A DNA stretch of 64,000 nucleotides, from positions 1-64,000 of the forward strand of contig JAOTVV010000002.1 of the NCBI GenBank assembly GCA_029863245.1, written 5' to 3'. Below, in pieces: positions 689-62,544 of the stretch. The notes under the pieces are model-generated. The model was not told where the DNA came from and ran no database searches. It saw nothing but the letters and a program-made list of their open reading frames with translations. Source of the DNA: Gemmatimonadota bacterium (lineage in GTDB: Bacteria; Gemmatimonadota; Gemmatimonadetes; Gemmatimonadales; GWC2-71-9). Every line of letters begins with the position of its first letter. Position 1 is the first letter of the stretch. Made by a program: the position numbers and the translations under genes.

Positions 689-717
689 TTGGGGTGCTTC
701 ACCTCAGGTGTTAGATT
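689..717 (+). promoter_or_regulatory. Predicted sigma-70-type promoter for the kinase-like gene
   Basis: TTGGGG (689-694) and TAGATT (712-717) are separated by 17 nt. The -10 element ends only 6 nt before the ATG at 724, so transcription would begin at or next to the start codon and leave no room for a ribosome binding site. It belongs to a set of similar promoters in this window. Confidence 0.5.
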
Positions 718-723
718 AGAGTC

Positions 724-2283
724 ATGATCTGCCCCCGCTGCTCCGTCGCGGAGATCCCCGAGGACACGCACGAGTGCCCACTGTGCGGGTTCACGCCGTC
801 GACGAACGTGCTCGTCGAACAGGCCATCGTCGACGAGGCGCGCCAGGCGGTACAGCAGACGCTTGCCGATCGGTTCCGCATCGAGCGCGTCCACCGCCTC
901 GGGCAGCGCTCGTTCGTCTATGTGGCCCGCGAGCTGGAGGCCGACCGCGACGTCGCGCTCAAGGTGATCCCCGTAACCCATTTGGTGGACCACGAGCTGG
1001 CCAAGCGCTTCGAGCGCCACGCCGGCATCGCGGCCTCACTCCGCCACGCCCATATCGCGCCGGTCCTCAGCTACGGCGTCGCACGGTCGTTCCTGTGGTA
1101 CTCCATGGAGTTCTTCAGCGCGCGGTCCCTCGAAGAAATCTTGAGGGAAGCGGGGGCCATGGAGCTCGAGAGTTGTCTGCGGATCGCGGAACAAGTGGGG
1201 AGCGCGCTCGACTTCGCTCATCGGCGCGGAGCGGTGCACGGCAACCTCAAGCCCAGCAACATCCTCGTCGACGACCGGGGTTGGGTGCGGGTCATCGATT
1301 TCGGGATCAACGAGGTGTTTGGACGCCCACGGCCGGCCAGGGGCAGTGCCCCAGTGCTCCACCTGGCCGAGTACCTGGCGCCGGAGCAGTTCTACTCGCG
1401 CTCGGTCGGGGCGAGTGCCGACCAGTACGCGTTCGGCGTCGTCGTGTACCAGTGTCTCGCTGGGAGCGTCCCGTTCCTCGGGGACTCGTTCGAAGAGGTT
1501 GCCCGGCTCCATGCGACGGAACCGCCTCCGCGCCTCTCGGACGTTCGACGGGATCTTCCTGTGAGCGTCATGGAAGCCGTCGCACGAGCGCTCAGCAAGC
1601 TACCGGCAGGGCGGTTCCCGACGGTCCTCGACTTCACCGCGGCCCTCAGTGGGGCTCCACGGCGGACTGCGCCTCACGACACTGTGGCGCCGGCTCCGCC
1701 GCCGTCGGACACACCGGTCCTCGTCGTGGACGAACCCGCCAAACGGCTCACGCCCGCGCGGGTGACGCTCGGCAGCGTCCTGCTCGCGATCACAATCGCG
1801 GTCGCTCTGCTGCTGTGGAATCCCGAGTGGTTTGCCTGGACAGCGCCGCTCCTCGACCGGGCGCGAAGCATGGTGGCACCGGAGGCCGCACGGAACGCCA
1901 CTCTGCAGGAGCCGCAGTGGGAGACGCTCGATCCGGTGTCGCAGTTCGGCAGGCCGGCGACGGTCCCGGCAGCGCCCGAAGAGACCGCCGACCCGGTGGA
2001 GCTGCCTCCGCGTGCAACGGTCCAGACTGCACCACGTGCCCAGACCGCAGCTCCGCCGCTGCAGCCCGGTCGGCTGTTCGTGAACGCGTCGCCCTGGGGG
2101 GAGCTGTATCTCGATGGCCAATTCATCGGTAACACCCCCAAGGCCAACCTCGACCTGAGCCCCGGCCGTCACACGATCCGGGTCGCGCGGGACGGATTCG
2201 AGCCGTTCGAGCGACAACTCGACGTCGCCTCGGGGCAGGTGATCCGACTGACCGATATCGTGCTCGTTCCGCGGGATCGATGA
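724..2283 (+). CDS. Zinc-ribbon / protein kinase-like / PEGA membrane protein (possible pseudokinase)
   Basis: The 519-residue protein has an N-terminal zinc ribbon (CPRC ... CPLCG, residues 3-22), a Ser/Thr kinase-like domain (about 45-310), one membrane helix (about 346-365), a Pro/Ala-rich linker and a C-terminal PEGA domain (about 448-519). The VALK lysine (K80), DFG (D192) and APE motifs are present. The catalytic-loop HRD is HGN (172-174): the expected catalytic Asp is Asn, and the glycine loop is weak (LGQRSF). Phosphotransfer is therefore doubtful and a scaffold or sensor role is plausible. The PEGA end is predicted to be periplasmic. The next gene overlaps by 4 nt, so the three genes to 3982 probably form an operon. 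Confidence 0.88.
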   Translation: MICPRCSVAEIPEDTHECPLCGFTPSTNVLVEQAIVDEARQAVQQTLADRFRIERVHRLGQRSFVYVARELEADRDVALKVIPVTHLVDHELAKRFERHAGIAASLRHAHIAPVLSYGVARSFLWYSMEFFSARSLEEILREAGAMELESCLRIAEQVGSALDFAHRRGAVHGNLKPSNILVDDRGWVRVIDFGINEVFGRPRPARGSAPVLHLAEYLAPEQFYSRSVGASADQYAFGVVVYQCLAGSVPFLGDSFEEVARLHATEPPPRLSDVRRDLPVSVMEAVARALSKLPAGRFPTVLDFTAALSGAPRRTAPHDTVAPAPPPSDTPVLVVDEPAKRLTPARVTLGSVLLAITIAVALLLWNPEWFAWTAPLLDRARSMVAPEAARNATLQEPQWETLDPVSQFGRPATVPAAPEETADPVELPPRATVQTAPRAQTAAPPLQPGRLFVNASPWGELYLDGQFIGNTPKANLDLSPGRHTIRVARDGFEPFERQLDVASGQVIRLTDIVLVPRDR

Positions 2284-3338
2284 TCCGGCCGCGCATCTGG
2301 CTGCTCGCTGTCTGCGGAGCCTTCCTCCTGGCGGAGCCGGCCGCCGGGCAAGGATCCGGGGAGCTCGTGCAGCGGGGTATCCAGGCCTATCGGGATCTCG
2401 AGCTTCCGACGGCCGTCGGGCTCATCCGCCGAGCGTTGGCGGCACAGGGTGACGACACACTCCCCGAACCCGCACGACTGGAGGCGCTGAGCTACCTGGG
2501 GGCGGCGGAGTTCGTGCGAGGCAGAAACGATTCGGCGGCAGCCGCCTTTCGTCGCATCGTCCAGCTGGACCCGCGATATCGCCTCGACCCTCTGGTCTTT
2601 CCACCGGAGCTAACGGCGCTCTTTGCGAGCGTGAGGCGTGACACGAAGGTGGTGGAGGCCGAGCTCCCCGCCGTAGCGACCATTGCCGCCGGATCCGGGG
2701 AGTTCGCGCCTCGGCTGTTTGCCAGCTCGTTTCACGAGGTCCGGGTGACCATCGAGCGAACCGACGGCGTGCCGGCGCGACAGGTCTACGAGGGGCTCAT
2801 CTCCGACAGTCTCGAGCTGCGGTGGGACGGACTCGATGCAACCGGTGCGCCCCTGCAGAGTGGCCGCTACGTGCTGGCGATCGAATCACGACTCGCCTCG
2901 GGCCAGGTCGTGCGCATCCTGCGGGTGCCACTCGACATCGAGTCCAACCCAGCCGATACCGTGGATCATCCTCCACTACCACCGGATTCGTTGTTCCTCC
3001 CCGAACGGGTGACTCGCGGTCCGGGGCTCGAGGCTCTCGTCGGCGGATTGGTCGGTGGTGTGGGGATCGCGGTCCTCCCGCTTGTCGTGGCGCCCGATGC
3101 CGATCTGTCGGCCGGCAGGATCGCCGTGGCCGGCACCGTGGCGCTGACGGGTGTGATCGGCTTCTTCAAGCAGCGACCCGGCCGCCCCATCGCGGCGAAC
3201 GTCCGAGCCAACGAACTGCTGCGGCAGGATTGGCGGGCGCGAGTCGGTGAGGTCGCGCAACTGAACGCCGGGCGGCGATCGATCGCGGAGATCGTGGTGC
3301 GTGCCGGGCCGCCCACCGTGATTGACGTGGCGCGCTGA
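2280..3338 (+). CDS. Exported TPR-like protein with FlgD-type Ig-like segment
   Basis: The start (ATGA) overlaps the previous stop by 4 nt, indicating translational coupling. A signal peptide covers about residues 1-23 (LLAVCGAFLLAEPAAG). Residues ~25-115 form helical TPR-like repeats (AYRDLELPTAVGLIRRAL, FRRIVQLDPRYRLDP). Residues ~150-225 resemble the FlgD/BACON-like Ig fold (WDGLDATGAPLQSGRYVLAIE). One or two hydrophobic segments follow near 250-300 (LVGGLVGGVGIAVLPLVV and IAVAGTVALTGVIGF). I do not recognise a named family. Coupling to the kinase-like protein and the barrel-like protein suggests a joint envelope function, which is inference. Confidence 0.75.
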   Translation: MIRPRIWLLAVCGAFLLAEPAAGQGSGELVQRGIQAYRDLELPTAVGLIRRALAAQGDDTLPEPARLEALSYLGAAEFVRGRNDSAAAAFRRIVQLDPRYRLDPLVFPPELTALFASVRRDTKVVEAELPAVATIAAGSGEFAPRLFASSFHEVRVTIERTDGVPARQVYEGLISDSLELRWDGLDATGAPLQSGRYVLAIESRLASGQVVRILRVPLDIESNPADTVDHPPLPPDSLFLPERVTRGPGLEALVGGLVGGVGIAVLPLVVAPDADLSAGRIAVAGTVALTGVIGFFKQRPGRPIAANVRANELLRQDWRARVGEVAQLNAGRRSIAEIVVRAGPPTVIDVAR

Positions 3339-3982
3339 TGTGCCGTCTCCTGCAAAACGTCAGTGTGCTTGCCATGGTGGCGCACGCACTCGCGAGCCCA
3401 ACCGCCGCGCAGGGATTCGGTGGTGAGGTCCGGGCTGTCGTAGGGTTTCCGACGGTGAATCGCGAGGCACTGGCGACGGTCGATCGTCTGACGGGGACCG
3501 CCTTCGGTCTCGATGCGGGAGTGCGATTCTGGCGTCTCGAGCTGACCGTACGGTATCTCCAGGGTCCCCTCGAGAGCAGCATCGATCAGACCAAATCCGA
3601 TCTGGTACAAGGCACGGTGGCGCTCCAGGTGCGACCCATCGACTTCCTCACCGTCGGCATTGGCCCGCAGGCTCGAAGCTACATCTCGGAGGGCGGAACC
3701 GAGCGGTGGCTCGCGTGGGAGGGTCGGCTGGGTGTGGACACGTGGCTGCTCCGACCCGCCCTCAGGAGCGCGCTGGTGTTGTCGTACGCGCTGGGCGGCA
3801 GCGTGAATACCGGGTCGGCCTTTTCCAAGGGGGGCAGCATCGAGGGCAGGCTCGAGGCCCGAATCCCGCGCACTCCATTGTGGGCCGCCGTCGGCTACCG
3901 CGTCGAACACGGATCGTTGGGCGCGAACACCGGTACCGACACCCTCGAGGAATTCCTGCTGAGTGTGGCGGTCGGCCGCTGA
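3338..3982 (+). CDS. Predicted outer-membrane beta-barrel-like protein
   Basis: The 214-residue protein begins in a TGATG overlap with the preceding gene. It has a probable signal peptide (about 1-24, ending SPTAAQG) followed by alternating hydrophobic/polar strands (VRFWRLELTVRYLQG, LTVGIGPQARSYIS, RSALVLSYALGGS, AAVGYRVEHGSL), and ends in LLSVAVGR. The pattern fits a small outer-membrane barrel. No specific family is recognised. It is the last gene of the kinase-like/TPR/barrel operon and converges with the proline dehydrogenase gene 21 nt away. Confidence 0.65.
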   Translation: MCRLLQNVSVLAMVAHALASPTAAQGFGGEVRAVVGFPTVNREALATVDRLTGTAFGLDAGVRFWRLELTVRYLQGPLESSIDQTKSDLVQGTVALQVRPIDFLTVGIGPQARSYISEGGTERWLAWEGRLGVDTWLLRPALRSALVLSYALGGSVNTGSAFSKGGSIEGRLEARIPRTPLWAAVGYRVEHGSLGANTGTDTLEEFLLSVAVGR

Positions 3983-4003
3983 CGGTGAGGACGGACCCTC
4001 GCG

Positions 4004-4936
4004 CTAAGCCGAGACCATGCTCCGCACGACGAACCACAAGTTGGCCGGCCGCTCGGCCAGGCGCCGCATGTACCACGGGAACCACGCGCTGCCGTAGCTG
4101 ACCAGCACCCGAACGGACTGCCCCTCGGCCGTGAGCCGGATCTGCTCGTTGCGCCGAATGCCATACAGCATCTGGACTTCGTATGCGTCCTTGGGAATCC
4201 CGGCACCCTCCGCGAAGTCACGAATGCGGTCGATGAGCTGCATGTCGTGCGTACCGAATCCCGCCCGCACCCCCAGGTCGCGTGCCTCCGCACTGAGCAT
4301 GCGCTTGGCGAGACGCATGAAGTTCTCGTCCACGTCGCGCTTCCGCGGGAAGGCCAGATTGGGAGGCTCGCTGTACGCTCCTTTTACCAGGCGGATGGCC
4401 GGAGCGAGCGGCAGCAGCTGCTCCAAGTCTTCAGCCGTCCGGTACAGATAGGACTGGAGGCATACGCCCACGTTCGTCTGACGCGAGCGCAGATCCCGGA
4501 ACAGCTCCAGCGTGGCGTCGACGTACGGTGTCGCTTCCATGTCGATCCAGAGGAAACTGCCGCTCGCGTCTGCTCGGGCAGCCAACGCCTGGAGCTGAGC
4601 GGCGCACACGTCCTTCCCCACATCCAGGCCCATTTGGCTGGGCTTGACCGAGATTTCGGTCGGGAGGCCCGGCCGCCGGATGCGCTCGTACGCGTCCAAG
4701 TAGTGGGTCGTCATGCGCTCGGCCTCGGCGCGATCGGTGATCGCCTCCCCGAGTAGGGTCACCACCGTGCTCATGCCCAACTCTCGGAGCTGTTCGGCAG
4801 TGGCGAGCGCCGCATCGAGCGTTTCGCCGGGCATGAACCGGCGTACCGCGCGTTGCACGAACTTGCGCTTCGGGACTCGTGTGCCCAGCCATTGGTTCTG
4901 CGATCCCTTGAGCAGCAACGTCCGCATGGCACCCAC
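4004..4936 (-). CDS. Proline dehydrogenase
   Basis: This 310-residue FAD enzyme is predicted to oxidise L-proline to pyrroline-5-carboxylate and feed electrons to quinone. Family signatures are present: EISVKPSQMGLD (about 95), the FAD/substrate barrel segment IDMEATPYVDATLELF, RLVKGAYSEPPN, EVQMLYGI (about 255) and the C-terminal MRRLAERP (about 290) that contacts proline carboxylate. The length matches monofunctional PRODH (Thermus/Bacillus type), not the PutA fusion. A GTG start at 4936 is preceded by GGAGA at good spacing; an ATG three codons on is an alternative. No P5C dehydrogenase gene is in the window. Confidence 0.92.
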   Translation of the reverse strand: MGAMRTLLLKGSQNQWLGTRVPKRKFVQRAVRRFMPGETLDAALATAEQLRELGMSTVVTLLGEAITDRAEAERMTTHYLDAYERIRRPGLPTEISVKPSQMGLDVGKDVCAAQLQALAARADASGSFLWIDMEATPYVDATLELFRDLRSRQTNVGVCLQSYLYRTAEDLEQLLPLAPAIRLVKGAYSEPPNLAFPRKRDVDENFMRLAKRMLSAEARDLGVRAGFGTHDMQLIDRIRDFAEGAGIPKDAYEVQMLYGIRRNEQIRLTAEGQSVRVLVSYGSAWFPWYMRRLAERPANLWFVVRSMVSA

Positions 4937-5102
4937 GACTCGTCTCCGGTCGGCAGTTGAGGTTTACGGTCCCGTACTCGGCTATTCTGGCGGATGACGT
5001 GGTTCAATGGTACGAATGGGTGACGGGTGGGGCAAAGGGCAGGAACGCGGGACCAGGCCGCCGGGTACCATGTTCATATACCGAATCGGTTGGGAGGAAT
5101 CG

Positions 5103-5657
5103 ATGAGGAAACTCGTGTCTGGTATCTCAGTTCTGTTCGTCGCGCTGTGGCTCGCGGCGCCGGCAGCCGCTCAGGTGGAGTCGAAACACCGGGGCTTCTG
5201 GATCAGTTTTGGCCTCGGGGGCGGCTGGAATGTGAGTCAGAACGTTGGTGTGGCGCAGGAGACCAAACCCGGAGGCGCCGGGTTCATCAGGCTGGGCGGT
5301 ACGCTGACCCAGAGACTGCTGCTTGGCGGTGAGGCGATCGCCTGGGGAACGGAGGTCGACGGGGCCACGATCGGCCGCGGAAACGGGACCGTCACCGTCA
5401 TGTTTTATCCGTCTGTGGAGACCGGGGTGTTTCTCAAGGGTGGCGTTGGCGGTTCGACGTTCACGACCAGTTTTACCTCGGGCAACACGACGACGACGAC
5501 GACCGATAATGGATTCGGCGCGACCGCCGGCGTCGGGTGGGATGTGCGGCTCGGGCGGAACTTCTATCTGACGCCTACGGTCGACTTCCTGTACCAGCGG
5601 GTCACGGACGTCAGCAATGCGATCGTGCTGATCACCGTGGGCGCGACGTGGCACTGA
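5103..5657 (+). CDS. Small predicted outer-membrane beta-barrel protein
   Basis: The ATG at 5103 follows GGGAGGAAT and opens a clear signal peptide (MRKLVSGISVLFVALWLAAPAAAQ); an upstream in-frame start at 5007 would bury this signal and is rejected. The mature protein (~160 residues) has Gly/Thr-rich alternating strands (GFWISFGLGGGWN, LLLGGEAIAWGTEV, VFLKGGVGGSTF, GATAGVGWDVRL, FYLTPTVDFLYQRV, IVLITVGATWH) typical of an 8-strand OmpA/OmpW-like barrel ending in an aromatic-containing strand. A Thr run lies at about 125-131. The function is unknown. Confidence 0.75.
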   Translation: MRKLVSGISVLFVALWLAAPAAAQVESKHRGFWISFGLGGGWNVSQNVGVAQETKPGGAGFIRLGGTLTQRLLLGGEAIAWGTEVDGATIGRGNGTVTVMFYPSVETGVFLKGGVGGSTFTTSFTSGNTTTTTTDNGFGATAGVGWDVRLGRNFYLTPTVDFLYQRVTDVSNAIVLITVGATWH

Positions 5658-5730
5658 TCGACCGCTGAGGACCCGCACCGGTACCTGGAGAAAGCCGAAT
5701 CCGGAAACGGTGCGGGGAGGCGCACAAGAG

Positions 5731-5757
5731 AACGGGCGACCGTGCCGGTCGCCCGTT
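5731..5757. terminator. Strong inverted repeat, probable bidirectional terminator
   Basis: An 11-bp perfect stem, AACGGGCGACC (5731-5741) with GGTCGCCCGTT (5747-5757), encloses a 5-nt loop. It lies between the barrel gene (+ strand, ends 5657) and the 3' end of tRNA-Ser (- strand, ends 5783), where both transcripts must end. There is only a short T stretch, so efficiency is uncertain. Confidence 0.6.
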
Positions 5758-5782
5758 TCGCGTTGGTGGATCCTAACGGCGA

Positions 5783-5869: not shown

Positions 5870-5880
5870 AGAGCCCGTGC

Positions 5881-5886: not shown

Positions 5887-5974
5887 GAGGCATGGGTGCT
5901 TAGTTTCCACCCCGCACGCATGGCGCCTGCTGCGGGCCGCGACCCGCTCTGGCTGATCCGATTTGAGACACCTC

Positions 5975-6981: not shown

Positions 6982-7010
6982 TTGACGCCCTCTCTCCGCC
7001 CGTCTAACTT
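6982..7010 (+). promoter_or_regulatory. Predicted promoter of the pyr operon
   Basis: TTGACG (6982-6987), a 17-nt spacer and TAACTT (7005-7010). Initiation near 7017 would leave about 5 nt before the pyrR ATG at 7022, so the mRNA is nearly leaderless and there is no Shine-Dalgarno sequence in that interval. Confidence 0.65.
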
Positions 7011-7021: not shown

Positions 7022-7573
7022 ATGACCCCACCCGAGCGAAAAGTCCTTCTCGACGCGAGCGGCGTCGCCAAAACGCTCGAGCGAATCTCCCGGGACATTG
7101 TCGGCTTGGCCGGAGGCACCAACAACCTCGTGCTGATCGGCATTCAGCGGCGGGGATCCGATCTCGCGCAGCGGCTTGCGCACATGATCGGTGAGAAGCG
7201 CGGACAGGATGTCCCACTGGGCGTCATGGACATCACGCTCTATCGCGACGATCTCCAGACCGTCGGGCCCCGGCCGGTCGTGGGCGAGACCCGGCTGCCG
7301 CAGGATCTCGACCACAAGTGGATCGTGATCGTCGATGACGTCCTCTACACCGGGCGGACCATCCGAGCGGCGCTCGACCAGCTGGCCGATTTCGGCAGGC
7401 CGGCTCGCATCGGCCTCGCGGTGCTGGTGGATCGCGGTGGGCGCGAACTCCCCATCCAGGCCGACGTGGTGGGTCTGGCCGTGAAGGCCACACCCGCCGA
7501 CCGCGTGGACGTCCTGGTTCAGGAACAGGACGGCCGTGACGCCGTCGAGCTGGTGCGGGGGGGGGAGTCGTGA
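7022..7573 (+). CDS. pyrR: Bifunctional pyr operon regulator / uracil phosphoribosyltransferase PyrR
   Basis: The 183-residue type I phosphoribosyltransferase carries the PRPP loop [10 protein letters not shown] (about 104-113), the N-terminal segment [15 protein letters not shown] and the PyrR-typical flexible loop [11 protein letters not shown]. In Firmicutes PyrR binds an RNA leader when UMP is high and also makes UMP from uracil and PRPP. Here it heads pyrB and pyrC, overlapping pyrB by 4 nt, so pathway membership is clear. The predicted transcription start leaves no leader to bind, so RNA-based regulation is not supported by the 5' end seen here. Confidence 0.94.
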
Positions 7574-8541
7574 CAGTTCCCTCGCTCGGCAAGGATCTCT
7601 TGGGCCTCGAGCCGCTCAGCCGAGAACAGATTCAGTTGATCCTCGACACCGCCGAGCCATTCAAGGAAGTCAGCGAACGCGCCATCAAGAAGGTTCCCGC
7701 CCTGCGTGGCAAGACGATCGTCAATCTCTTTTTCGAGGCGTCGACCCGCACCCGCATCTCGTTCGAATTCGCCGAGAAACGGTTGTCCGCCGACACGGTG
7801 AACGTCGCGGCACAGGGGTCGTCCGTGCAGAAGGGCGAGAACTTGGTCGATACCGCTCGGAACCTCGAGTCGATGCGGATCGACATGGTTGTCATTCGCC
7901 ATCCGTCGTCAGGGGCCGCGCAGTTCCTTGCGGAGCGCATCCGCTCGAACGTGATCAACGGCGGCGACGGGATGCACGAGCATCCCACGCAGGCGCTGCT
8001 CGACATGCTGACCATTCGCGACCGGTTCAACCGCATCGAGGGTCTCCGAGTCTGTATTTGCGGCGACATCGCCCACAGTCGAGTGGCGCGATCTAACATC
8101 TGGGGTCTCACCAAGCTCGGTGCTGAAGTGGCGGTGTGCGGCCCTCAGAGCCTGATGCCCGGCGCCATCGAGGAGCTCGGCGTGACCGTCTTCCGGCGGA
8201 TCGAAGAAGCGATCGAGTGGGCCGACGTGCTCAACGTCATGCGTCTCCAGCTCGAGCGGATGGAGGCAGGGTATATCCCCTCGCTTCGGGAGTACTACCG
8301 GGTCTTCGGCGTCACACTGGAGCGGCTCGAGCGCGCGCCGCGCGACGTCCTCATTCTCCATCCCGGCCCGATGAATCGCGGGGTCGAGATCGACTCTCGG
8401 GTCGCGGATGGACCGCACAGTGTGATCCTCGATCAGGTGACGAACGGCGTGGCCGTGCGCATGGCCGTGCTGTATCTGCTGGCGGGAGGGCGGCCGGAGT
8501 TGGCGGAGGCCGCTAAGGGCGATCGGGGAGGGGGCGCATGA
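7570..8541 (+). CDS. pyrB: Aspartate carbamoyltransferase, catalytic subunit
   Basis: The 323-residue enzyme makes N-carbamoyl-L-aspartate from carbamoyl phosphate and aspartate, the committed step of pyrimidine synthesis. It has the carbamoyl-phosphate motif STRTR (58-62) in [13 protein letters not shown], the second-subunit loop [16 protein letters not shown] (about 138) and the C-terminal [12 protein letters not shown]. The GTG start overlaps the pyrR stop by 4 nt. No pyrI regulatory-subunit gene is nearby, so it probably works as a trimer or with dihydroorotase, encoded next. Confidence 0.96.
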
Positions 8542-9824
8542 AACCGATGCTGCTCAGGGGAGGCCGGGTCATCGATCCGTCGCAGCAGCAGGACGGCGAG
8601 GCCGATGTGCTGATCCTAGACGGAGAGATTGGGGGACTCGGGCCGAATCTGTCGGCTCCGGCGGGCGCCGACGTCGTCGACGTCTCCGGGAAAGTGGTTG
8701 CACCGGGGCTCGTCGACATCCACGTGCACTTGCGGGAGCCCGGCCAGGAAGACGCCGAGACTGTCACGAGTGGTGCCGTCGCAGCAGCGGCGGGCGGCTT
8801 CACGTCGATCTGCGCCATGCCCAACACTGACCCGGTGACCGACAACCAGGCGGCAGTGGGTTTCATCGTCAAGCAGGCGGCCGCGGCTCGTGCCGCGCGG
8901 GTCTATCCCATTGGGGCGATCTCCGTGGGACAGCGCGGTGAGCAGCTTGCCGAGTTTGGCGAGATGGTGGCCGCCGGCGCGGTGGCCGTGAGTGACGACG
9001 GGCATCCCGTGGTGTCCAGTCACCTCATGCGCACGGCGTTGGAGTACGCGCTGTCGTTCAATATCCCGGTTGCGGAACACTGCGAAGACCCAGCGCTCTC
9101 GAAGCACGGTGTGATGAATGCGGGGCGTGTCGCAACACGCCTCGGCCTGCGGGGGATCCCGGCGGCGGCCGAGGAGATCATGGTGGCGCGGAACATCCTG
9201 ATGGGAGAGCTTACCGGGGGCCACATCCACTTGTGCCACATCTCGACCCGTGGGTCGGTCGACCTCATCCGATGGGGGAAGGCCCGCGGAGTGAACGTCA
9301 CAGCCGAGGCAACGCCTCACCATTTCGCGATCACGCACGACGCCTGCGAAGGGTACGATACCAACGCGAAAATGAATCCCCCGTTACGGGCAGCGGCGGA
9401 TGTCGAGGCGGTGGCGGTGGGGCTCGCCGACGGCACGCTCGACGTGATCGCCACCGACCATGCACCGCACCACTACGAGGCAAAGGAACGCGAGTTCGAT
9501 GACGCGCCATTCGGCGTCGTCGGGCTCGAGACGGCCCTCGGGCTTGGGATGTCGCTGCTTGTGGACAAGGGACGGCTCAGCCTCCCCCAGCTGATCGATC
9601 GGATGAGTACGGCACCGGCCCGGATCTTCCATTTGCCGGCCGGCACCTTGAAGCAGGGGGTGGCGGCCGATGTGGTCGTCTTCGATCCCGCAGCCCGATG
9701 GGTGGTCGAGCCCGAGCAGTTCCGGTCGAAGAGCCGGAATACGCCGTTCCGAGGGTGGGAGCTCCTGGGCCGTGTGGAGCGTACCTTGGTGGGTGGGCGC
9801 ACCGCCTATCTGCAGGGGCGGTGA
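8538..9824 (+). CDS. pyrC: Dihydroorotase
   Basis: The 428-residue class I (PyrC/Bacillus-type) dihydroorotase cyclises carbamoyl aspartate to dihydroorotate. Metal ligands are visible: [10 protein letters not shown] (H62, H64), EHCED, HICHIST, and the catalytic Asp in IATDHAPHH (D307). It is longer than the E. coli ~348-residue type and fits the class that associates with PyrB in other bacteria. The start overlaps the pyrB stop by 4 nt. Later pathway genes (pyrD, pyrE, pyrF) are not in the window. Confidence 0.96.
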
Positions 9825-11164: not shown

Positions 11165-11193
11165 TTGACACTCCCCAGTGCCGCCGTTAGCTT
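11165..11193 (+). promoter_or_regulatory. Predicted promoter of the M50 protease-scpAB operon
   Basis: TTGACA (11165-11170), a 17-nt spacer and TAGCTT (11188-11193), divergent from the rpsT promoter with the two -35 boxes 12 nt apart. The start near 11200 gives a leader of about 11 nt before GTG 11211, without a recognisable Shine-Dalgarno sequence. Confidence 0.6.
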
Positions 11194-11210: not shown

Positions 11211-11906
11211 GTGGACCATCCCCACGTGCATGAATTCTTACTGGCGCTTCCCGTGCTGCTGTTTTCGATGGTGGCACACGAATACGCGCACGGTTACGCC
11301 GCGCTCCGGCAGGGCGATCCAACGGCGATGTCACTGGGCCGGCTCACCCTGAACCCGCTCAAGCACATTGACCCGCTCATGACGATCCTGATGCCCGTCG
11401 CGCTGTTTGTGGGCTCGGGTGGACAGGTGATCTTCGGTGGGGCCAAGCCGGTGCCGGTCAATCCGCGCAATTATCGGAACTACCGCCGCGGTGACGTAAT
11501 CGTGTCGGCAGCGGGAATCGTGGCCAATCTCGGTCTGGTCGTCGTGGCGATGGTCCTGACCATCGCGCTCGGTATGGTGAGCCACGGCCTCGGCGTCCGG
11601 GGTGTCCTGGCACCGATCCAGCGGATGATCGCCTGGGGCATCTGGCTAAACCTGCTGCTCGCCTTCTTCAATCTCATTCCCATTCCGCCGTTGGATGGAT
11701 CGCATCTGCTGTATCACGCTCTCCCACCGCGCCTCGGGCTCTGGTATCGGCAGATCGGTCGCTACGGCGTCGGCGTGCTGTTGGTTGTGGTCTTCGTCGC
11801 ACCCCGTGCTCTCTTCACATTGCTGACGCCGGCGTTCGCGTTGCATGCCGCTGCATGCTCCGTCGTATCGCCTTTCGCGTTGACGCCGGTACCGGTATGT
11901 CCGTGA
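11211..11906 (+). CDS. Site-2 protease-family membrane metalloprotease (M50)
   Basis: The 231-residue polytopic membrane protein has the zinc motif HEYAH (23-27) in the first helix and the second signature NLIPIPPLDGSHLL (about 153-166), where Asp supplies the third ligand. There are about 5-6 membrane segments and no PDZ domain, the compact group of M50B-like proteins common next to scpA/scpB. Substrates are unknown. The GTG start is inferred from promoter position and from HExxH spacing. It overlaps scpA by 10 nt. Confidence 0.88.
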   Translation: MDHPHVHEFLLALPVLLFSMVAHEYAHGYAALRQGDPTAMSLGRLTLNPLKHIDPLMTILMPVALFVGSGGQVIFGGAKPVPVNPRNYRNYRRGDVIVSAAGIVANLGLVVVAMVLTIALGMVSHGLGVRGVLAPIQRMIAWGIWLNLLLAFFNLIPIPPLDGSHLLYHALPPRLGLWYRQIGRYGVGVLLVVVFVAPRALFTLLTPAFALHAAACSVVSPFALTPVPVCP

Positions 11907-39511: not shown

Positions 39512-39541
39512 TTGACACCCGTTTGGAGCGCTAGGTAACTT
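39512..39541 (+). promoter_or_regulatory. Predicted promoter of the nuo operon
   Basis: TTGACA (39512-39517), an 18-nt spacer and TAACTT (39536-39541). A start near 39548 gives a ~37-nt leader containing GGGGGAG before the GTG at 39585. The -35 box is consensus and the -10 matches the form used at pyrR and the DUF177 gene. Confidence 0.65.
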
Positions 39542-39584
39542 CCCTCCGCCACAACACCGGAAATTCAAGGGGGAGCACGGCGAA

Positions 39585-54985: not shown

Positions 54986-57556
54986 GTGACAGCACGGCGC
55001 TGGATTCAGGCGGCGGCGTTGCTCGCGCTGGTCGTACTGGTCCTGGGGCGGTGGCAGGCCGTGGCGACCGGTAATGCCTGGTGGGCGGCGACGCTCGAGA
55101 TCGGGGCCACCCATGCCTTCCTGTCGCGGATCCGGGCGACGCTGCGGGTGTCGGCGCTCTTGGTCGCCACCGTCTGGTGCGTGGGAAATCTGTTGCTGGT
55201 ATATCGATCGATTCGATCGGTGCACGTCCCGCGACGGCTGGGCGATCTCGAGATCCTCGAAGCCGTTCCACGCCGCCTCCTGCTGGTGGGTGCCGTGGCT
55301 GCAGGTGTCCTGTTGGCGGTGGCGCTGAGCCACGGGGCCGGGGAGTGGTGGTACGCCCGCACGCTGGGAGGATTCCATGCTCCCCTGGGCGTTCGCGACC
55401 CCGTGCTCGGGCACGATCTGTCCTACTATCTCTTCCGTCTCCCGTGGCAACGCACGCTGCACTCGTTCGTCACGCTTCTCACCGGCGTCTTGCTCGCGAC
55501 AACGGCAGTGCTGTACGCAGCGGTCGGCGCGATCCGCTGGTCGCGGCGACGGCTTCGCGTGAACGAGCTAGCCCGATGGCACCTGGCTTTCCTTGCCGCC
55601 GCGTTTGCGCTGGCGCTCCTGTGGGGCTACCGGCTCGAGCCCGCCGAGTATGTCGCCGGGGTGCACGACCTTCCGGTCGACCAGGTGCTGACTGCCGTCC
55701 GCATCCCGGTGGCGCGCATGCTGAGCGTCCTCGCACTCGTCGCGCTCGGCGGGAGCCTCATGTGGCTGTGGACTGGACGCTTGGTTCTGCTCGGCGTGCC
55801 CTGGGCACTGCTGGCCCTCGGCTCGTTTGCGGGCCACTACGTGGTTCCGTCTTTTGCCGGCGCCGTCAGAAGCAGTGCCGAGCTGGTCCTGCCCGACATC
55901 GAAGCCAGAAGGCCTCAATTCGAAAGCATCGCGTACGGGGCGGTGACGAGCGAGCGCCCGCTCGATGTCGTTGGTGCGCGAACGCGTGCCACCGGGGAAC
56001 GCGGAACGGAACTCGATGGTGGGGTGCAGTGGGACGGCTTTGCCGTGACCGTTTTGCTCAATCGCGTCGCGGCCCCCGAGCTCGAGCACGCGTTTACGGA
56101 GGCATCGCTGGGGATGTACCGCACGACCGACGGGACTTCCGTTCCTGTCTATGTCGCAGCCCGGGTGACGGACCCCGCCGCGGCACGCGCGGCTGGTCAG
56201 GAGGTGACGTGGGACGAGGTTCATCTGGGGCGGTATGCGACCGCCCGAGGAGCGATTGCGGTCCGGGCCGACGCGGTGGCCGAGAGCGGGCTCCCGCTCT
56301 ACGTCCCAAACACGCGCACCCCTGAGGTCTCGTCGGCTCGAGTCGTCGAGACGGCCCTGGGCGACTCGACGATCCTGGTGGGCCCCGGCCTGACGGATTT
56401 CGCCATTCTCCCCGCTACGGGAGCTCGGCGAGGTGTTCCGCTGGGTGGGTTCTGGCGCCGGCTGACGCTGGCCTGGCTACTCCAGAGCCCTCGACTGGTT
56501 ACGTCGGATGCCGTGGGCGACTCGACGATCGTCGTCTGGCATCGGGACGTCGTCACCCGGCTCGAGCGGTTCGCTCCGTTCGCGCGGTTCGGCCAGGCGC
56601 GGGCCGTCGTGATCGACGGGCGGTTGTTCTGGGTGGCCAATGGCTACGTCAGCGCACGAGGCTTCCCGTTGAGTCCACCCGTCAGATGGCGCGATCAGAC
56701 GGTGCGCTATCTCCGGTCGAGCCTCGTCGGCGTTGTCGATGCGGCGTCGGGTGAGACGGTGGTCTATCTGACCCGCGAGGCCGATCCGGTGACCCTCGCG
56801 TGGGCTCAACTGGCTCCGCAGGTGCTGCGGCCAGCCGCGGAGCTGCCCCGCTCTATCCTCCCGAACGTGCCGTATCCTGAGGAGTCCCTCACAGCACAGA
56901 TCGCGATCCTGCAACGATCGACCCCTGGGTCCGCTGCGCTCGAGCAACCGGTGCTTGGACCGTCGGTGAGCGGTTCCCTGGTGGGGCAGGAGCCTTACTG
57001 GTGGGTCGGACCCACGATGGGCGACACGGTCCCGCGACTGCGCTTGCTGGTCCCGCTCGAGGGGTACGAATCCGGACGGCTGGCAGGTCTCCTCGACGGT
57101 ACGGTTCGGCAATCGGCACTCGTGCTCGAGCTGTACCGCGCCGACCGCTCCGACGAACCGTTGGGACCCGGCCAGATCGCCAGGCAGTTTGCGCGCCTGC
57201 GCGGAGAGGCGGTCGGGATCGCGGGGGTGGTGCGCATGCTGCCACTCGCAGGCGGGTTGGCAGCCGTGCAGTCGTCCTATGCCTCGCCCGGCGATGGCGG
57301 CGCGCCGCCTCAATTGGTCGATGTTGCAGTGAGCCTGGGTGGCGGAGTCGGCAGCGGACCTTCGCTGCGGGTGGCGTTGGAGCGCCTCCGAGCCGATGCC
57401 TCGCCTCCCGAAGGCGACCGACGCGAGTGGACCCGGGCCAGGCAGTGGTTCGACCGTATGGACGCGGCCCGGCGGACCGGTGACTGGGCTGCGTTCGGCC
57501 GCGCATACGACGAGCTTCGCCGACTGCTGCTGCCACGCGGGGACTCCATACGGTGA
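54986..57556 (+). CDS. UPF0182 family large membrane protein
   Basis: The 856-residue protein has about seven N-terminal membrane helices (residues ~5-310, such as AALLALVVLVLG, VSALLVATVWCVGNLLLVY, LHSFVTLLTGVLLATTAVLYAAVGAI) followed by a long soluble domain. UPF0182-type text includes DPVLGHDLSYYLFRLPWQRTL, RRPQFESIAYG, GDSTILVGPGLTDFAILP and LNPxFPNVPYPE-like RSILPNVPYPEESL. The soluble part ends with a helical region. Function is not established for the family. A GTG start at 54986 lies 4 nt after the mutase stop. Confidence 0.88.
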   Translation: MTARRWIQAAALLALVVLVLGRWQAVATGNAWWAATLEIGATHAFLSRIRATLRVSALLVATVWCVGNLLLVYRSIRSVHVPRRLGDLEILEAVPRRLLLVGAVAAGVLLAVALSHGAGEWWYARTLGGFHAPLGVRDPVLGHDLSYYLFRLPWQRTLHSFVTLLTGVLLATTAVLYAAVGAIRWSRRRLRVNELARWHLAFLAAAFALALLWGYRLEPAEYVAGVHDLPVDQVLTAVRIPVARMLSVLALVALGGSLMWLWTGRLVLLGVPWALLALGSFAGHYVVPSFAGAVRSSAELVLPDIEARRPQFESIAYGAVTSERPLDVVGARTRATGERGTELDGGVQWDGFAVTVLLNRVAAPELEHAFTEASLGMYRTTDGTSVPVYVAARVTDPAAARAAGQEVTWDEVHLGRYATARGAIAVRADAVAESGLPLYVPNTRTPEVSSARVVETALGDSTILVGPGLTDFAILPATGARRGVPLGGFWRRLTLAWLLQSPRLVTSDAVGDSTIVVWHRDVVTRLERFAPFARFGQARAVVIDGRLFWVANGYVSARGFPLSPPVRWRDQTVRYLRSSLVGVVDAASGETVVYLTREADPVTLAWAQLAPQVLRPAAELPRSILPNVPYPEESLTAQIAILQRSTPGSAALEQPVLGPSVSGSLVGQEPYWWVGPTMGDTVPRLRLLVPLEGYESGRLAGLLDGTVRQSALVLELYRADRSDEPLGPGQIARQFARLRGEAVGIAGVVRMLPLAGGLAAVQSSYASPGDGGAPPQLVDVAVSLGGGVGSGPSLRVALERLRADASPPEGDRREWTRARQWFDRMDAARRTGDWAAFGRAYDELRRLLLPRGDSIR

Positions 57557-57563
57557 ACTCTCC

Positions 57564-57592
57564 TTGCTGCCGTTCCTGCCCGCGGCTAGCTT
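57564..57592 (+). promoter_or_regulatory. Predicted promoter of the carbamate kinase-sucCD operon
   Basis: TTGCTG (57564-57569), a 17-nt spacer and TAGCTT (57587-57592). The start near 57599 lies 4 nt before GTG 57603 (or 13 nt before GTG 57612), so the mRNA would be nearly leaderless; no Shine-Dalgarno sequence is visible. Confidence 0.5.
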
Positions 57593-57602
57593 GCACGCCG
57601 CT

Positions 57603-58559
57603 GTGACAACCGTGCCGCGGAAGATCGTGATTGCGCTGGGAGGACACGCCCTGTCGCCCCTTGGGGAGCGTGCTGACATTCACACCCAGTTCCGGCATAC
57701 TCGCGACTCGCTCGGTGCCGTCGTCGAGTTTGCCAGGGAGGGGTGGGGGATCGTGATCGTTCATGGGAATGGTCCTCAAGTTGGCGATGCGTTGGACCGC
57801 AACGAAATGGCGCACGATCGAGTCGCGCCCTTGCCCCTAGGCGTGCTGGTGGCGGCGACTGCCGGGTGGATCGGGTACATGATCCAGCAGTCGCTGCAGA
57901 ACGAGCTTCACCATGCCGGAGTCGAGCGGGACGTGCTGACGGTCATCACGCAGACGGTCGTGGATCGGGCCGACCCCGCGCTGTTGCACCCCACCAAACC
58001 GATCGGGCACGAGTTGCCACCGGAGTTCGTGGAGCGACTGCAGCAGCGAGGTGCAGTTGTGGGCCAGGACGGCCGAGGACGCTGGCGGCGGCTGGCGCCG
58101 AGCCCGACGCCGACGGATGTCATCGAAGCCGACGCCGTGCGGCAGTTGGTGGGAGAGGGAAAGATCGTTGTAGCGGCCGGAGGGGGAGGTCCGCCGGTGT
58201 ACGCGGACGAGCGTGGATACTGGGAAGGCGTGGATGCTGTCGTTGACAAGGATCGAACCGCCGCCGTTCTCGGGGCCCGGGTAGATGCCGATACGTTGCT
58301 CATTCTGACGGATGTGGACGCGGTCTATCGTGGCTGGGGAACGTCGGATGCCACACCGCTCCGGCGGTTGCGGGTGAAAGAGGCCGAGGGGTTGCTTGCC
58401 GGTGACGTTTTGGGGGTCGGGAGTATGCGGCCGAAGGTCGAGGCGGCAGTCACCTTTCTGAAGCGAGGGGGGCGACATGCCTTCATTGCCCACCTCGCGG
58501 CTGGATTGGCCGCCACCCGCGGTGAGACTGGAACGATGATCACAGGAGTCGAAACGTGA
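57603..58559 (+). CDS. arcC: Carbamate kinase
   Basis: The 318-residue amino-acid-kinase-fold enzyme interconverts carbamoyl phosphate + ADP with carbamate + ATP. It has KIVIALGGHALSPLGE, VIVHGNGPQVGDALDRNEMA, QTVVDRADPALLHPTKPIG, VAAGGGGPPVYAD, the Asp/Lys-containing DAVVDKDRTAAVLG, TDVDAVYRGWGT and VGSMRPKVEAAVTFL, matching ArcC. GTG 57603 is chosen from the promoter position; GTG 57612 also fits. No arginine deiminase genes are present. It overlaps sucC by 4 nt, an unusual partnership. Confidence 0.92.
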   Translation: MTTVPRKIVIALGGHALSPLGERADIHTQFRHTRDSLGAVVEFAREGWGIVIVHGNGPQVGDALDRNEMAHDRVAPLPLGVLVAATAGWIGYMIQQSLQNELHHAGVERDVLTVITQTVVDRADPALLHPTKPIGHELPPEFVERLQQRGAVVGQDGRGRWRRLAPSPTPTDVIEADAVRQLVGEGKIVVAAGGGGPPVYADERGYWEGVDAVVDKDRTAAVLGARVDADTLLILTDVDAVYRGWGTSDATPLRRLRVKEAEGLLAGDVLGVGSMRPKVEAAVTFLKRGGRHAFIAHLAAGLAATRGETGTMITGVET

Positions 58560-59695
58560 ATCTGCACGAATATCAGGCACGCGCGCTGCTGAAGGCCGCC
58601 GGGATCCCGGTGCCGGATGGGGAGGTGGCGACCACACCGGACGAAGCCGAGGCGGTCGCCGCCCGGTTGGGATCCGCCGTGGTCGTCAAGGCGCAGGTGC
58701 ATGCGGGAGGTCGGGGGAAGGCCGGCGGAGTGAAGCTTGCCGCGAACGCCACGGAAGCGCGAGGACACGCCCAGCAGATCCTGGGCATGCGTATCAAGGG
58801 CCTCGTCGTCGAGCGCGTGCTCGTGGTTCCCGCAGCTAAGATCGCTTCCGAGAGCTATCTAGGGGTCATTGTCGATCGGGCGTCGCAGCGACCGGTCATC
58901 ATGGTCAGTCCCGCCGGAGGTGTCGACATCGAAGAGGTGGCGGCGAAGACCCCCGAGAAGCTGTTTCGCGTTGCCATCGATCCGCGGTTCGGTCTGCTGC
59001 CGCACCAGGCCATGGCGCTCGCATTCGAGTTGTACGACGACCTGGGACAGGTGCGGCAGGCTGCCACGATCATGCAGCAGTTGTATCGCGTGTTCCTCGA
59101 TGCCGGTGGATCACTGGCTGAGATCAATCCGCTGATCACGACGCCCGAGGGGGAAGTCCTGGCCTTGGATGCTAAGATCGTCGTGGATGACAACGAGCTG
59201 GCGCGGCGATCGTCGATCGCCGCACTGCGGGACGTAACGGCTGAGGACTCCTCAGAGGTGGAAGCTCGCAACGCCGGACTCTCCTACGTAAACCTCGACG
59301 GGAACGTGGGCTGCTGCGTGAACGGGGCCGGCCTGGCCATGGCCACCATGGACCTCGTGAAATACTACGGTGGCGAGCCTGCCAACTTCTTGGACATTGG
59401 CGGCAGCAGCAGCCCCGAGAAGGTCGTCGCCGCGCTCCGGATCATCACCCGCGACCGAAACGTAAAGAGCATCCTGTTCAACATTTTCGGCGGTATCACG
59501 CGATGCGACGACGTTGCCAACGGCATCGTCCAAGCGACTGGGCAGATGAAGCTGGACCGGCCGATCGTCATCCGGCTGACGGGCACCAACGAGGATCTCG
59601 CGATCGAGATTCTCCGTAAGGCAGGATTCGAAGCGCTGACCGACATGGACGAGGCGGTGCAGCAGGCGGTCAAATTGGCGCAGGAGGCGGCGTGA
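58556..59695 (+). CDS. sucC: Succinate--CoA ligase (ADP/GDP-forming) beta subunit
   Basis: The 379-residue ATP-grasp subunit opens with [22 protein letters not shown] and has [82 protein letters not shown] and [19 protein letters not shown]. With SucD it converts succinyl-CoA to succinate with substrate-level phosphorylation in the TCA cycle. ATGA junctions exist with both arcC and sucD (GTGA). Confidence 0.96.
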
Positions 59696-60561
59696 GCGTT
59701 TTCATCGACAAGACAACGAAGCTCGTCGTCCAGGGCATCACCGGGCGCGACGGATCGTTCCATACGGAGCAGATGCGGGAATACGGCACGAACGTGGTGG
59801 CGGGCGTGACGCCCGGGAAGGGTGGGCAGCGGTTCGCCAACGCCGTACCGATCTACGACACGGTCGCGGAGGCGGTGTCAGACACCGGGGCAAACACGGC
59901 CGTGATCTACGTGCCGGCCCGGTTTGCCGTCGATGCGATCTACGAGGCGGCAGATACGGGCGTCCACCTCGTGGTGTGCATCACGGAGGGCGTTCCGGTG
60001 CTCGACATGACGCGTGCGTTACTGTTCCTCGCCGAGCGTGGCACGCGGCTGATTGGACCGAACTGCCCGGGACTGATCTCGCCGGGCAAGGCCAAGGTCG
60101 GCATTATCCCGGGCCAGATCTGTCGCGAGGGCCGCATCGGGGTCGTGTCGCGAAGCGGAACCCTCACGTACGAGATCATTCATCAGCTGTCGAGTCATGG
60201 GTACGGGCAGTCCACGTGCATCGGGATCGGTGGCGATCCTCTCATCGGCACGAACTTCATCGATTGCCTCGAGGCCTTCGAGGCCGACCCGGAAACCGAG
60301 GCGATCGTGATGATCGGGGAGATCGGTGGCACCGACGAGCAGCAGGCCGCCGAGTACGTCGCCACGCATGTGTCGAAGCCCGTAGTAGGTTTCATTGCGG
60401 GGCAGACCGCACCGCCGGGTCGCCGTATGGGCCATGCCGGCGCTATCATCTCGGGGTCGTCGGGCACCGCGAAGGAGAAGATCGCCGCGTTCGAGCGAGC
60501 GGGAATTGAGGTCATGAAGCGGCCTGCAGATGTGGTCGCCCTGCTCGAGAAACGGAGCTGA
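59692..60561 (+). CDS. sucD: Succinate--CoA ligase alpha subunit
   Basis: The 289-residue CoA-binding subunit has [85 protein letters not shown] and the active-site phosphohistidine in [14 protein letters not shown] (H248). The GTG start overlaps sucC by 4 nt. A small hairpin (GGCGG/CCGCC at 60586-60598) without a T-tract lies in the 60-nt gap to the next gene. Confidence 0.97.
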
Positions 60562-60621
60562 AGGCGGACGCCACAGGGGCGGGCTGGCGGTGGCCGCCAA
60601 CCCACCCGAGGGGGACACCTC

Positions 60622-61518
60622 ATGAAACTCATTGAGCTCCTCGACCCAGAGCGCATCGTGGTGCCGCTGAAGTCAAAGTCTCTGCAAGAGGCGGCAACGA
60701 GGCTGACGGAGGCGATGGTGGGGTCCGGCGTCGTGACCGATCCCGAGCGGTTCCGTACTCAGGTCAAGGGGGTCATCCCCCGCGAGGTAGTCACTGTCGG
60801 GGCGGCGTTCCTGCTCCATTTTCGTACCGACGCCGTCCGACGGTTGAGCGCCGCATTAGGGGTAGCCCCGAAGCCGATCAGCCGGCGACCGGATTCCGAC
60901 CAGGAGGCCCGGATCGCCATCCTGCTGGCCGCGCCACCCAAGGACAGCTCGGCGCATCTGCGAGCGTTGAGCGCCTTCGCCAGGGCCATGAGCCGTCGAG
61001 AGATCGTGGCGGCCCTTGAGTCGGCGACCTCGGCAGAGGATATCCTTGCCACGGTGCCGCTGGCCGACCTGGAACTAACGGGTTACTTGACCGTGCGAGA
61101 CGTCATGGTGCAGGCGCGCCTCTCGGTTCAACCGGACATGACGCTGGGTGAGGCGGCAAAGCTGATGGTGGCGCACCAACTGGGTGCGCTCCCGGTGGTC
61201 TCGGATTCCGATGAGGTCCTCGGCCTCGTGTCCTATCAGGAACTCCTACGTCATCTGCTCCCAGCCTACGTCAAACGGGAGTCCACTGGCGAGTTCAGGG
61301 CGGCGCGGAGGGCGAGCGGCCCGGCGGATCCGCACCAACTTCCCGTGCGGGAGGTCATGGACCGGAGCGTGCTCTGTGTCTCGGAGGACCAGATTCTGGC
61401 CGACGTCGCAAGCATGATGGTGTCCCGCAACATCGAACGATTCCCGGTGGTGCGAGATGGCGCCTTCGTGGGATTCCTGACCCGTGGGGACATCGTGCGC
61501 CGTCTCTTCGGCCGCTGA
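60622..61518 (+). CDS. PTS EIIA-like domain fused to paired CBS domains
   Basis: The 298-residue protein joins an N-terminal PTS EIIA (fructose/Ntr-type) domain (about 1-145; IVVPLKSKSLQEAATRLTEAMVG) to two CBS domains (about 155-205, VRDVMVQARLSVQPDMTLGEAAKLMVAHQLGALPVVSD; 237-290, VREVMDRSVLCVSEDQILADVASMMVSRNIERFPVVRDGAFVGFLTRGDIVRR). A His at 66 (FLLHFRT) falls near the usual phosphorylated His, but the flanking PH/R pattern is altered. No PTS transporter is encoded nearby. An adenylate-sensing regulator is plausible given sucCD and ndk neighbours, as inference. Confidence 0.8.
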   Translation: MKLIELLDPERIVVPLKSKSLQEAATRLTEAMVGSGVVTDPERFRTQVKGVIPREVVTVGAAFLLHFRTDAVRRLSAALGVAPKPISRRPDSDQEARIAILLAAPPKDSSAHLRALSAFARAMSRREIVAALESATSAEDILATVPLADLELTGYLTVRDVMVQARLSVQPDMTLGEAAKLMVAHQLGALPVVSDSDEVLGLVSYQELLRHLLPAYVKRESTGEFRAARRASGPADPHQLPVREVMDRSVLCVSEDQILADVASMMVSRNIERFPVVRDGAFVGFLTRGDIVRRLFGR

Positions 61519-61559
61519 CCAGACCTCCAGACATCTGACCGAAACGGATACGATCAACG

Positions 61560-61982
61560 ATGCTGACCCTCGCCATCATCAAGCCGGATGCCGTCTCCCG
61601 CGCCAAGATGGGAGCCGTTCTCGCTCATTTGGAGCGGGACGGGTTCGTCGTACGGGCTGCTCGGCTCGTACGCCTGACTCGACCGGAGGCCGAAGCGTTC
61701 TACGCGGTACACCGGGAGCGCCCGTTCTTCAAATCGCTCGTCGCGTTCATGACCTCCGGGCCATGTCTTCCCCTGGTCTTGGAGCGGGAACAGGCCGTCA
61801 GCCGGCTGCGGGAGGTGATCGGCGCTACCGAACCGGCTGAGGCGGCACCCGGCACGGTTCGCAAGCTCTACGCCGAGTCAAAGGAGCGGAATGCGATCCA
61901 CGCGTCCGACTCGCCGGAGAACGCGCAGCGCGAGGTCGGGTTCTTCTTTCCGAAGGCGGAACTCGAAGGGCTGTGGGGCTAA
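61560..61982 (+). CDS. ndk: Nucleoside-diphosphate kinase
   Basis: The 140-residue enzyme equilibrates nucleoside triphosphates through a phosphohistidine. It begins MLTLAIIKPDAVSR and has the active-site ERNAIHASDSPENAQREVGFFF (H114) plus SGPCLPLVLEREQAVSRLREVIGAT. ATG 61560 is used; a TACGAT -10-like hexamer ends 5 nt before it but no -35 box is seen. The gap to the upstream gene is 41 nt. Confidence 0.96.
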   Translation: MLTLAIIKPDAVSRAKMGAVLAHLERDGFVVRAARLVRLTRPEAEAFYAVHRERPFFKSLVAFMTSGPCLPLVLEREQAVSRLREVIGATEPAEAAPGTVRKLYAESKERNAIHASDSPENAQREVGFFFPKAELEGLWG

Positions 61983-61991
61983 TGCGGTGCG

Positions 61992-62020
61992 TTGACGCAA
62001 GTTGCAGTCAAGACTAACTT
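61992..62020 (+). promoter_or_regulatory. Predicted promoter of the DUF177-rpmF-plsX-fabH operon
   Basis: TTGACG (61992-61997), a 17-nt spacer and TAACTT (62015-62020), the same hexamers as at pyrR. The start near 62027 falls within 2 nt of ATG 62029, predicting a leaderless mRNA. Confidence 0.65.
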
Positions 62021-62028
62021 TGCAGGTT

Positions 62029-62544
62029 ATGTTGCTGGTTGATTTGCGCGCGGTTGCCACGGGGCCGTTCGAGACCAAGGCCGAGATCGCGATTGACGAT
62101 CCGATTCTCGAGGGGCTCGAACTCGCCTTGCAGGAGCCGCTCAGAGTCGAGGGACGGCTCACGTCGAGCGGGCCCAGCCAGTACTACTGGCAGGGCAGCC
62201 TCGCAACGCGGCTGGCCTCAGCCTGCCGACGCTGTCTCGAGCCCATGACCGTAGACGTCGACGCGTCGGTGAGCGCCTTGTTCACCGAGGAAGAGGGAGC
62301 GGACGATGCCTCGACGTACGTCATCCAGCGTGACGGCACCGAACTCGACCTCGGACCCATGGTTCGGGAGGAGCTGGCACTGGCCGCGCCGAAGTATGTC
62401 ACGTGCCGCGACTCCTGTAAGGGGCTGTGCGCGCACTGCGGTAAGGATTTGAACCAAGGTCCGTGTTCCTGTGAGCCCGAGCCCGACCCACGGTGGGCGG
62501 TGCTCCGCGCGCTTCGGACCGACGGACCCGATACGGAGAGGTAG
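62029..62544 (+). CDS. DUF177 / YceD family protein
   Basis: The 171-residue protein (MLLVDLRAVATGPFETKAEI) has the DUF177 features: LASACRRCLEPMTVDVDASVSALFTEE, VREELALAAPKYVTCRDSCKGLCAHCGKDLNQGPCSCE with paired cysteines that may bind metal. The family almost always sits before rpmF; YceD is linked to 23S rRNA processing or accumulation. ATG 62029 is preferred to an upstream in-frame start because the promoter -10 would otherwise lie inside the gene. It is 7 nt from rpmF. Confidence 0.9.
   Translation: MLLVDLRAVATGPFETKAEIAIDDPILEGLELALQEPLRVEGRLTSSGPSQYYWQGSLATRLASACRRCLEPMTVDVDASVSALFTEEEGADDASTYVIQRDGTELDLGPMVREELALAAPKYVTCRDSCKGLCAHCGKDLNQGPCSCEPEPDPRWAVLRALRTDGPDTER

What the first reader, a model, noticed from the sequence alone, without database searches (positions are those of the whole stretch)
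689..62031. Recurrent promoter architecture predicting leaderless or near-leaderless mRNAs
At five places a TTG-type -35 box, a 17-nt spacer and a TAnnTT -10 box end 6-17 nt before the start codon: 689-717 (ATG 724), 6982-7010 (ATG 7022), 11165-11193 (GTG 11211), 57564-57592 (GTG 57603) and 61992-62020 (ATG 62029). The -10 forms are TAACTT or TAGCTT/TAGATT. Transcripts would carry 0-11 nt of leader and no Shine-Dalgarno sequence, while internal operon genes use overlaps or normal ribosome binding sites. The nuo promoter (39512-39541) has the same boxes but a longer leader. This suggests that leaderless initiation is a normal mode for operon-first genes in this lineage.
Basis: partly seen in the sequence, partly recalled or inferred. 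Interest (0 to 1): 0.7.

Follow-up and report, generated by a model that had tools for sequence, protein, structure and literature searches.

The report
Leaderless-type promoters in Gemmatimonadales
In this little-studied bacterial lineage, about one in five recognisable promoters sits so close to its gene that the messenger RNA should begin at, or within a few bases of, the start codon; this is a known way of starting translation that I could not find reported for this group.

Summary
They are far above chance: TTGAC plus TAnnTT at 3-12 nt from operon-first starts was seen 5 times against 0.07 expected. Three sites keep near-leaderless spacing across other genera: pyrR in 29/29 genomes (8-12 nt), YceD in 27/27 (8-9 nt) and the carbamate kinase-like gene in 15/22. 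Site C is probably wrong: relatives start at the codon equal to GTG 11226, giving a leader of about 26 nt. Site A is weak.

In 859 operon-first genes of four genomes from two families of the order, recognisable promoters form two groups: a sharp peak 6-7 nt before the start, a depleted zone at 13-21 nt, then a broad leadered group. About 18% are near-leaderless; half of the leadered genes carry Shine-Dalgarno (SD) sequences. Near spacing is twice as common as 25-32 nt spacing in 43 and 69 genomes of the two families, but not in six genomes outside the class.

Leaderless initiation is probably a genuine minority mode, not the rule for first genes. The kind is known (Deinococcus, Mycobacterium); the lineage appears undocumented. 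No transcript ends were measured.

The parts
689..717 (+). Site A promoter TTGGGG-N17-TAGATT, 6 nt before ATG 724; weak -35
   Evidence: 8.0 bits, one of eight homologues examined (L323) has a matching near promoter
724..2283 (+). Serine/threonine protein kinase with PEGA domain, first gene
   Evidence: Pfam PF00069, PF08308
6982..7010 (+). Site B promoter TTGACG-N17-TAACTT, 11 nt before ATG 7022
   Evidence: conserved at 8-12 nt in 29 of 29 genomes
7022..7573 (+). PyrR-like phosphoribosyltransferase, first gene of a pyr operon
   Evidence: Pfam PF00156; followed by PF02729/PF00185 and dihydroorotase-like genes
11165..11193 (+). Site C promoter TTGACA-N17-TAGCTT; real promoter but probably leadered
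   Evidence: relatives have it mostly 29-40 nt before the conserved start
11226..11906 (+). Peptidase M50 gene from the more likely start GTG 11226 (reader used GTG 11211)
   Evidence: start aligned in homologues; Pfam PF02163
39512..39541 (+). nuo promoter TTGACA-N18-TAACTT with a 43-nt gap to GTG 39585
39569..39575 (+). SD-like GGGGGAG before nuoA GTG 39585
   Evidence: sequence; nuoA by Pfam PF00507
57564..57592 (+). Site D promoter TTGCTG-N17-TAGCTT, 10 nt before GTG 57603
   Evidence: 15 of 22 homologues with a promoter have it at 8-10 nt
57603..58559 (+). Amino acid kinase family gene, carbamate kinase-like
   Evidence: Pfam PF00696; alternative start GTG 57612
61992..62020 (+). Site E promoter TTGACG-N17-TAACTT, 8 nt before ATG 62029
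   Evidence: 8 or 9 nt in 27 of 27 genomes
62029..62544 (+). YceD (DUF177) gene, first gene of an operon running towards plsX
   Evidence: Pfam PF02620; PF02504 at 62736

Best explanation
The window's Gemmatimonadales genome uses a housekeeping promoter of the form TTGAC-N17/18-TAnCTT. At a minority of operon-first genes this promoter is placed so that RNA polymerase should start at, or up to about 5 nt before, the start codon. The resulting mRNA would have no room for a Shine-Dalgarno site and would be translated by the leaderless route, with the 5'-terminal start codon recognised directly by the ribosome carrying initiator tRNA. Other first genes keep leaders, about half of them with SD sites, and internal genes rely on SD sites or overlaps. 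Shown: promoter, spacing, conservation, two-group spacing. Inferred: the actual RNA 5' ends and the leaderless translation step.
For: Boxes confirmed. Excess over shuffles. Best-hit distance peaks at 6-7 nt (26 of 52 hits within 4-12 nt at 8 bits), which is the spacing reported for leaderless genes in Deinococcus radiodurans (PMC12340547). Depletion at 13-21 nt (10 against about 30 in each of the next two bins, P=3e-5) is what two separate initiation modes would leave. Near spacing kept across genera: pyrR 29/29, YceD 27/27, ArcC-like 15/22. Four of the five ArcC-like homologues whose promoter lies 22 nt or more upstream have an SD motif before a candidate start; none of the 15 near ones does. 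Genome-wide pattern counts in 112 genomes of two families: near spacing about twice the 25-32 nt spacing.
Against: No RNA 5' ends. Start codons in most of the 859 genes come from a home-made gene caller. The absence of SD in the near group is partly forced, because the -10 box occupies that position. pyrR and ArcC-like spacings (8-12 nt) imply leaders of about 1-5 nt rather than exactly none. Additional upstream promoters giving long leaders are not excluded.
Confidence: 0.82

Rival explanations
1. The -10-like boxes near starts are chance or codon-bias matches in a GC-rich genome.
For: Single TANNTT boxes alone occur elsewhere upstream at appreciable rates.
Against: Two-box matches exceed shuffles 10-fold or more, are absent before internal genes, and are conserved at fixed spacing over about 30 genera while spacer sequences differ.
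Confidence: 0.03
2. The promoters are real, but the true start codons lie downstream, so the transcripts are leadered.
For: This is what homologues indicate for site C; site D has an alternative start 9 nt downstream.
Against: For YceD and pyrR the start codon aligns with the start of the conserved protein in most genomes, with no later conserved start, and the pooled spacing peak at 6-7 nt would not arise from random start errors.
Confidence: 0.08
3. The conserved near-start promoters are secondary; main transcripts start at other upstream promoters with normal leaders.
For: Not testable from sequence; alternative promoters for the same gene are known in Mycobacterium tuberculosis (PMC3898074).
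Against: Most homologues have no other strong promoter within about 100 nt in the listings, and SD motifs are absent before these starts.
Confidence: 0.07

Closest known systems
-10 motif next to ORFs, leaderless genes of Deinococcus-Thermus (PMC12340547; also PMC3160421)
   Same: A -10 box 6-7 nt before the start codon of many genes, GC-rich genome, coexisting with SD-led genes.
   Different: There about 30% of ORFs carry it and most lack a -35 box; here the -35 TTGAC is well kept, the -10 consensus is TAnCTT and the detectable share of first genes is 4-6%.
Leaderless transcripts of Mycobacterium tuberculosis (PMC3898074)
   Same: Leaderless class defined as a 5' end within 5 nt of the start codon; TANNNT -10; minority (26% of genes with a primary start site).
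   Different: No conserved -35 found there; no ribosomal protein genes were leaderless there, whereas here rplU (L21) has the near-start promoter in several genomes.
Bacteroidetes sigma-ABfr promoters (PMC6847099)
   Same: T at positions -8 and -7 of the -10 element (TAnnTT) and a short primary sigma factor without region 1.1.
   Different: Bacteroidetes need TAnnTTTG with a weak -33 element, lack SD sites and are mostly leadered (87% with more than 10 nt in Flavobacterium johnsoniae); here -35 TTGAC is strong, SD sites are used and near-leaderless genes occur.

Membership tests
Leaderless gene class of bacteria (TA-like signal, Zheng et al. 2011 sense) | -10-like signal with a positional peak about 12 nt before the start (first T of TANNNT), significantly above background | tested here: met
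   -10 end at 6-7 nt, so first T at about 12-13 nt; 38 hits against about 2.6
Leaderless gene class of bacteria (TA-like signal, Zheng et al. 2011 sense) | RNA 5' end within 5 nt of the start codon | not testable with these tools
   no transcript data; predicted leaders 0-5 nt at sites A, B, D, E
Leaderless gene class of bacteria (TA-like signal, Zheng et al. 2011 sense) | No SD site before the start codon | tested here: met
   0 of 38 near genes have SD4 against 60 of 121 leadered; partly forced by the -10 box
   38 of 217 recognisable promoters
Bacteroidetes sigma-ABfr-type promoter system | Primary sigma factor short, without region 1.1 | tested here: met
   best RpoD-type matches in three genomes of the class are short proteins, open frames of 293-386 codons, below the TIGR02393 cut-off; that it is the primary sigma is inferred
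Bacteroidetes sigma-ABfr-type promoter system | Full TAnnTTTG -7 element | tested here: not met
   position after TAnnTT is T in 36%, then C or G equally; no fixed TG

The most novel reading that the evidence does not exclude
The class containing Gemmatimonadales has a hybrid expression system: a Bacteroidetes-like short primary sigma factor reading TTGAC-N17/18-TAnCTT promoters, with SD-led and leaderless initiation used side by side, the leaderless mode including operons for ribosome-related proteins (YceD, L21) and having arisen or been lost within the phylum.
Probability: 0.35. Interest if true: 0.55.

Novelty: new member of a known kind. Interest (0 to 1): 0.42.

Why it matters
Leaderless initiation is patchy among bacteria and its evolutionary meaning is debated. 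A lineage with intact SD use, a usable -35 box and a conserved minority of leaderless genes, next to relatives that lack the near-start peak, gives a natural comparison. It also warns that start codon prediction in these genomes should model a -10 box before the start. A PyrR gene with at most about 5 nt of leader cannot be controlled by the leader-binding attenuation known from Bacillus (established knowledge), so its regulation would need another explanation.

Tried and rejected
A strict pattern TTGAC-N18-TANNTT-N6-RTG in the own genome gave only one match: too strict to be informative. A named-genome search with the kinase found nothing. Site C as a leaderless gene was rejected on homologue alignment. 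SD absence in the near group was considered as independent proof and set aside, because the -10 box occupies the SD position. A Bacteroidetes sigma factor was not compared directly; the Protein Data Bank search returned none by name. Supplement tables of PMC12340547, which may list Gemmatimonadota genomes, could not be read.

Full report
What the window is. The window is bases 1-64000 of contig C18 of a 3.68 Mb, 75-contig genome. The closest named relatives of its PyrR are metagenome genomes labelled Gemmatimonadales or Gemmatimonadota. GC content is 66%.

Check of the observation. All six promoters are at the given coordinates. Sites B, C and E have TTGAC-type -35 boxes; D has TTGCTG and A only TTGGGG. 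Gaps from the -10 box to the proposed start are 6, 11, 17, 10 and 8 nt. I called genes in 457 kb and later 740 kb of the genome with a coding-score method that does not look at upstream sequence. In the 457 kb sample, 205 operon-first genes had 5 promoters (TTGAC with at most one mismatch, TAnnTT) at 3-12 nt, against 0.07 expected from shuffles; 176 internal genes had none.

Is it conserved? I aligned starts and upstream regions of homologues from other genera of the family (alignments; summary). pyrR: all 29 genomes have a promoter of at least 9 bits 8-12 nt before the first in-frame start. YceD: 27 of 27 at 8-9 nt, although protein identity to the window's copy is often only 40-58%. Carbamate kinase-like gene: 22 have a promoter, 15 of them at 8-10 nt; of the five whose promoter lies 22 nt or more away, four have an SD-like motif before a candidate start, and none of the 15 near ones does. 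M50 peptidase (site C): the promoter is conserved but mostly 29-40 nt from the start, and the window's GTG 11226 is the aligned start, so this example should be dropped. The kinase (site A): only one homologue (L323) among eight examined shows a similar near promoter.

Genome-wide picture. A two-box weight matrix was trained on 859 first genes from four genomes of two families. It was seeded with TTGAC and TAnnTT, but in the window's genome the -10 converged on TAnCTT even when started from TATAAT. The best promoter per gene peaks 6-7 nt before the start. At 9 bits there are 38 hits at 4-12 nt, 10 at 13-21, 29 at 22-30 and 30 at 31-39; shuffles give about 2.6 per 9-nt bin. The trough at 13-21 is significant (P=3e-5 against the next two bins). 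Of leadered promoters (22-75 nt), 60 of 121 genes have an SD motif; of genes without a recognised promoter, 30%. So near-leaderless promoters are about 18% of those recognised and 4-6% of all first genes, a lower bound because weak promoters are missed.

Spread. Counting TTGAC-N18/19-TANNTT followed by ATG at 5-12 or at 25-32 nt in 200 genomes of the phylum: 43 genomes of the window's family have 364 against 174, 69 genomes of a second family 276 against 127, but six genomes from outside the class have 82 against 98 (sums). A sampled genome from outside the class, G042, has 2 near promoters among 69 (Fisher P=0.001). The trait therefore seems to belong to part of the phylum, though one sampled genome and six pattern counts are thin support for the contrast.

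How it probably works. The 16S 3' end is GGATCACCTCCTTT, so SD pairing is available and used. At near-start promoters, RNA polymerase should start at the start codon or up to about 5 nt before it, which falls within the definition of leaderless used for Mycobacterium tuberculosis (5' end within 5 nt, PMC3898074). Translation would then follow the leaderless route. That step, and the 5' ends, are inference. rplU also fits: the window genome and G019 have near promoters, and in G014, G026 and G040 the rplU start coincides with a near-pattern match.

Sigma factor lead. In three genomes of the class the best RpoD-type sigma falls below the RpoD family cut-off and is short, without region 1.1; G042 has a long RpoD and a short paralogue. 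Bacteroidetes have a short primary sigma and a TAnnTTTG element (PMC6847099). The shared T at -8 is suggestive only; the full TTTG is not present here.

What is known. Leaderless genes were surveyed computationally in 953 bacterial genomes (PMC3160421); Gemmatimonas and Gemmatimonadetes are not named in its text. A 2025 study proposes the near-ORF -10 motif as an expression mode in Deinococcus-Thermus and surveyed other phyla in supplements I could not read (PMC12340547). Searches of the paper library for leaderless with Gemmatimonas, Gemmatimonadetes or Gemmatimonadota found no study of it in this group. Subscription papers are not covered.

Verdict.

Noticed in passing
G000 C57:67015-67719 (L353), G017 (L352), G043 (L354), G042 (L351, L355): Genomes of the window's class lack an RpoD over the TIGR02393 cut-off; their best sigma is short, without region 1.1, while an out-of-class genome has both a long RpoD and a short paralogue.
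   Followed up: partly
G000 C18:245739 (minus), G019 L227:12048, G014/G026/G040: rplU (ribosomal protein L21) has a near-start promoter 8-9 nt before ATG, unlike Mycobacterium tuberculosis, where no ribosomal protein genes were leaderless.
   Followed up: partly
window 61992-62028 and L132-L161: The YceD promoter has extra conserved letters: CAAGT-like sequence after the -35 box and GGCT just before ATG in many genomes, suggesting further constraint.
   Followed up: no
G054 C113:60977-61078, G026 C95:142587-142687 and similar: A conserved divergent pair of near-start promoters on opposite strands recurs in several genera.
   Followed up: no
L306, L308, L310, L311, L317: Some carbamate kinase-like homologues have switched to a leadered promoter with an SD motif, a possible natural leaderless-to-leadered transition.
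   Followed up: partly
window 7022-9824: PyrR-like gene heads a pyr operon with at most about 5 nt of leader, which would rule out leader-binding attenuation at this operon.
   Followed up: no
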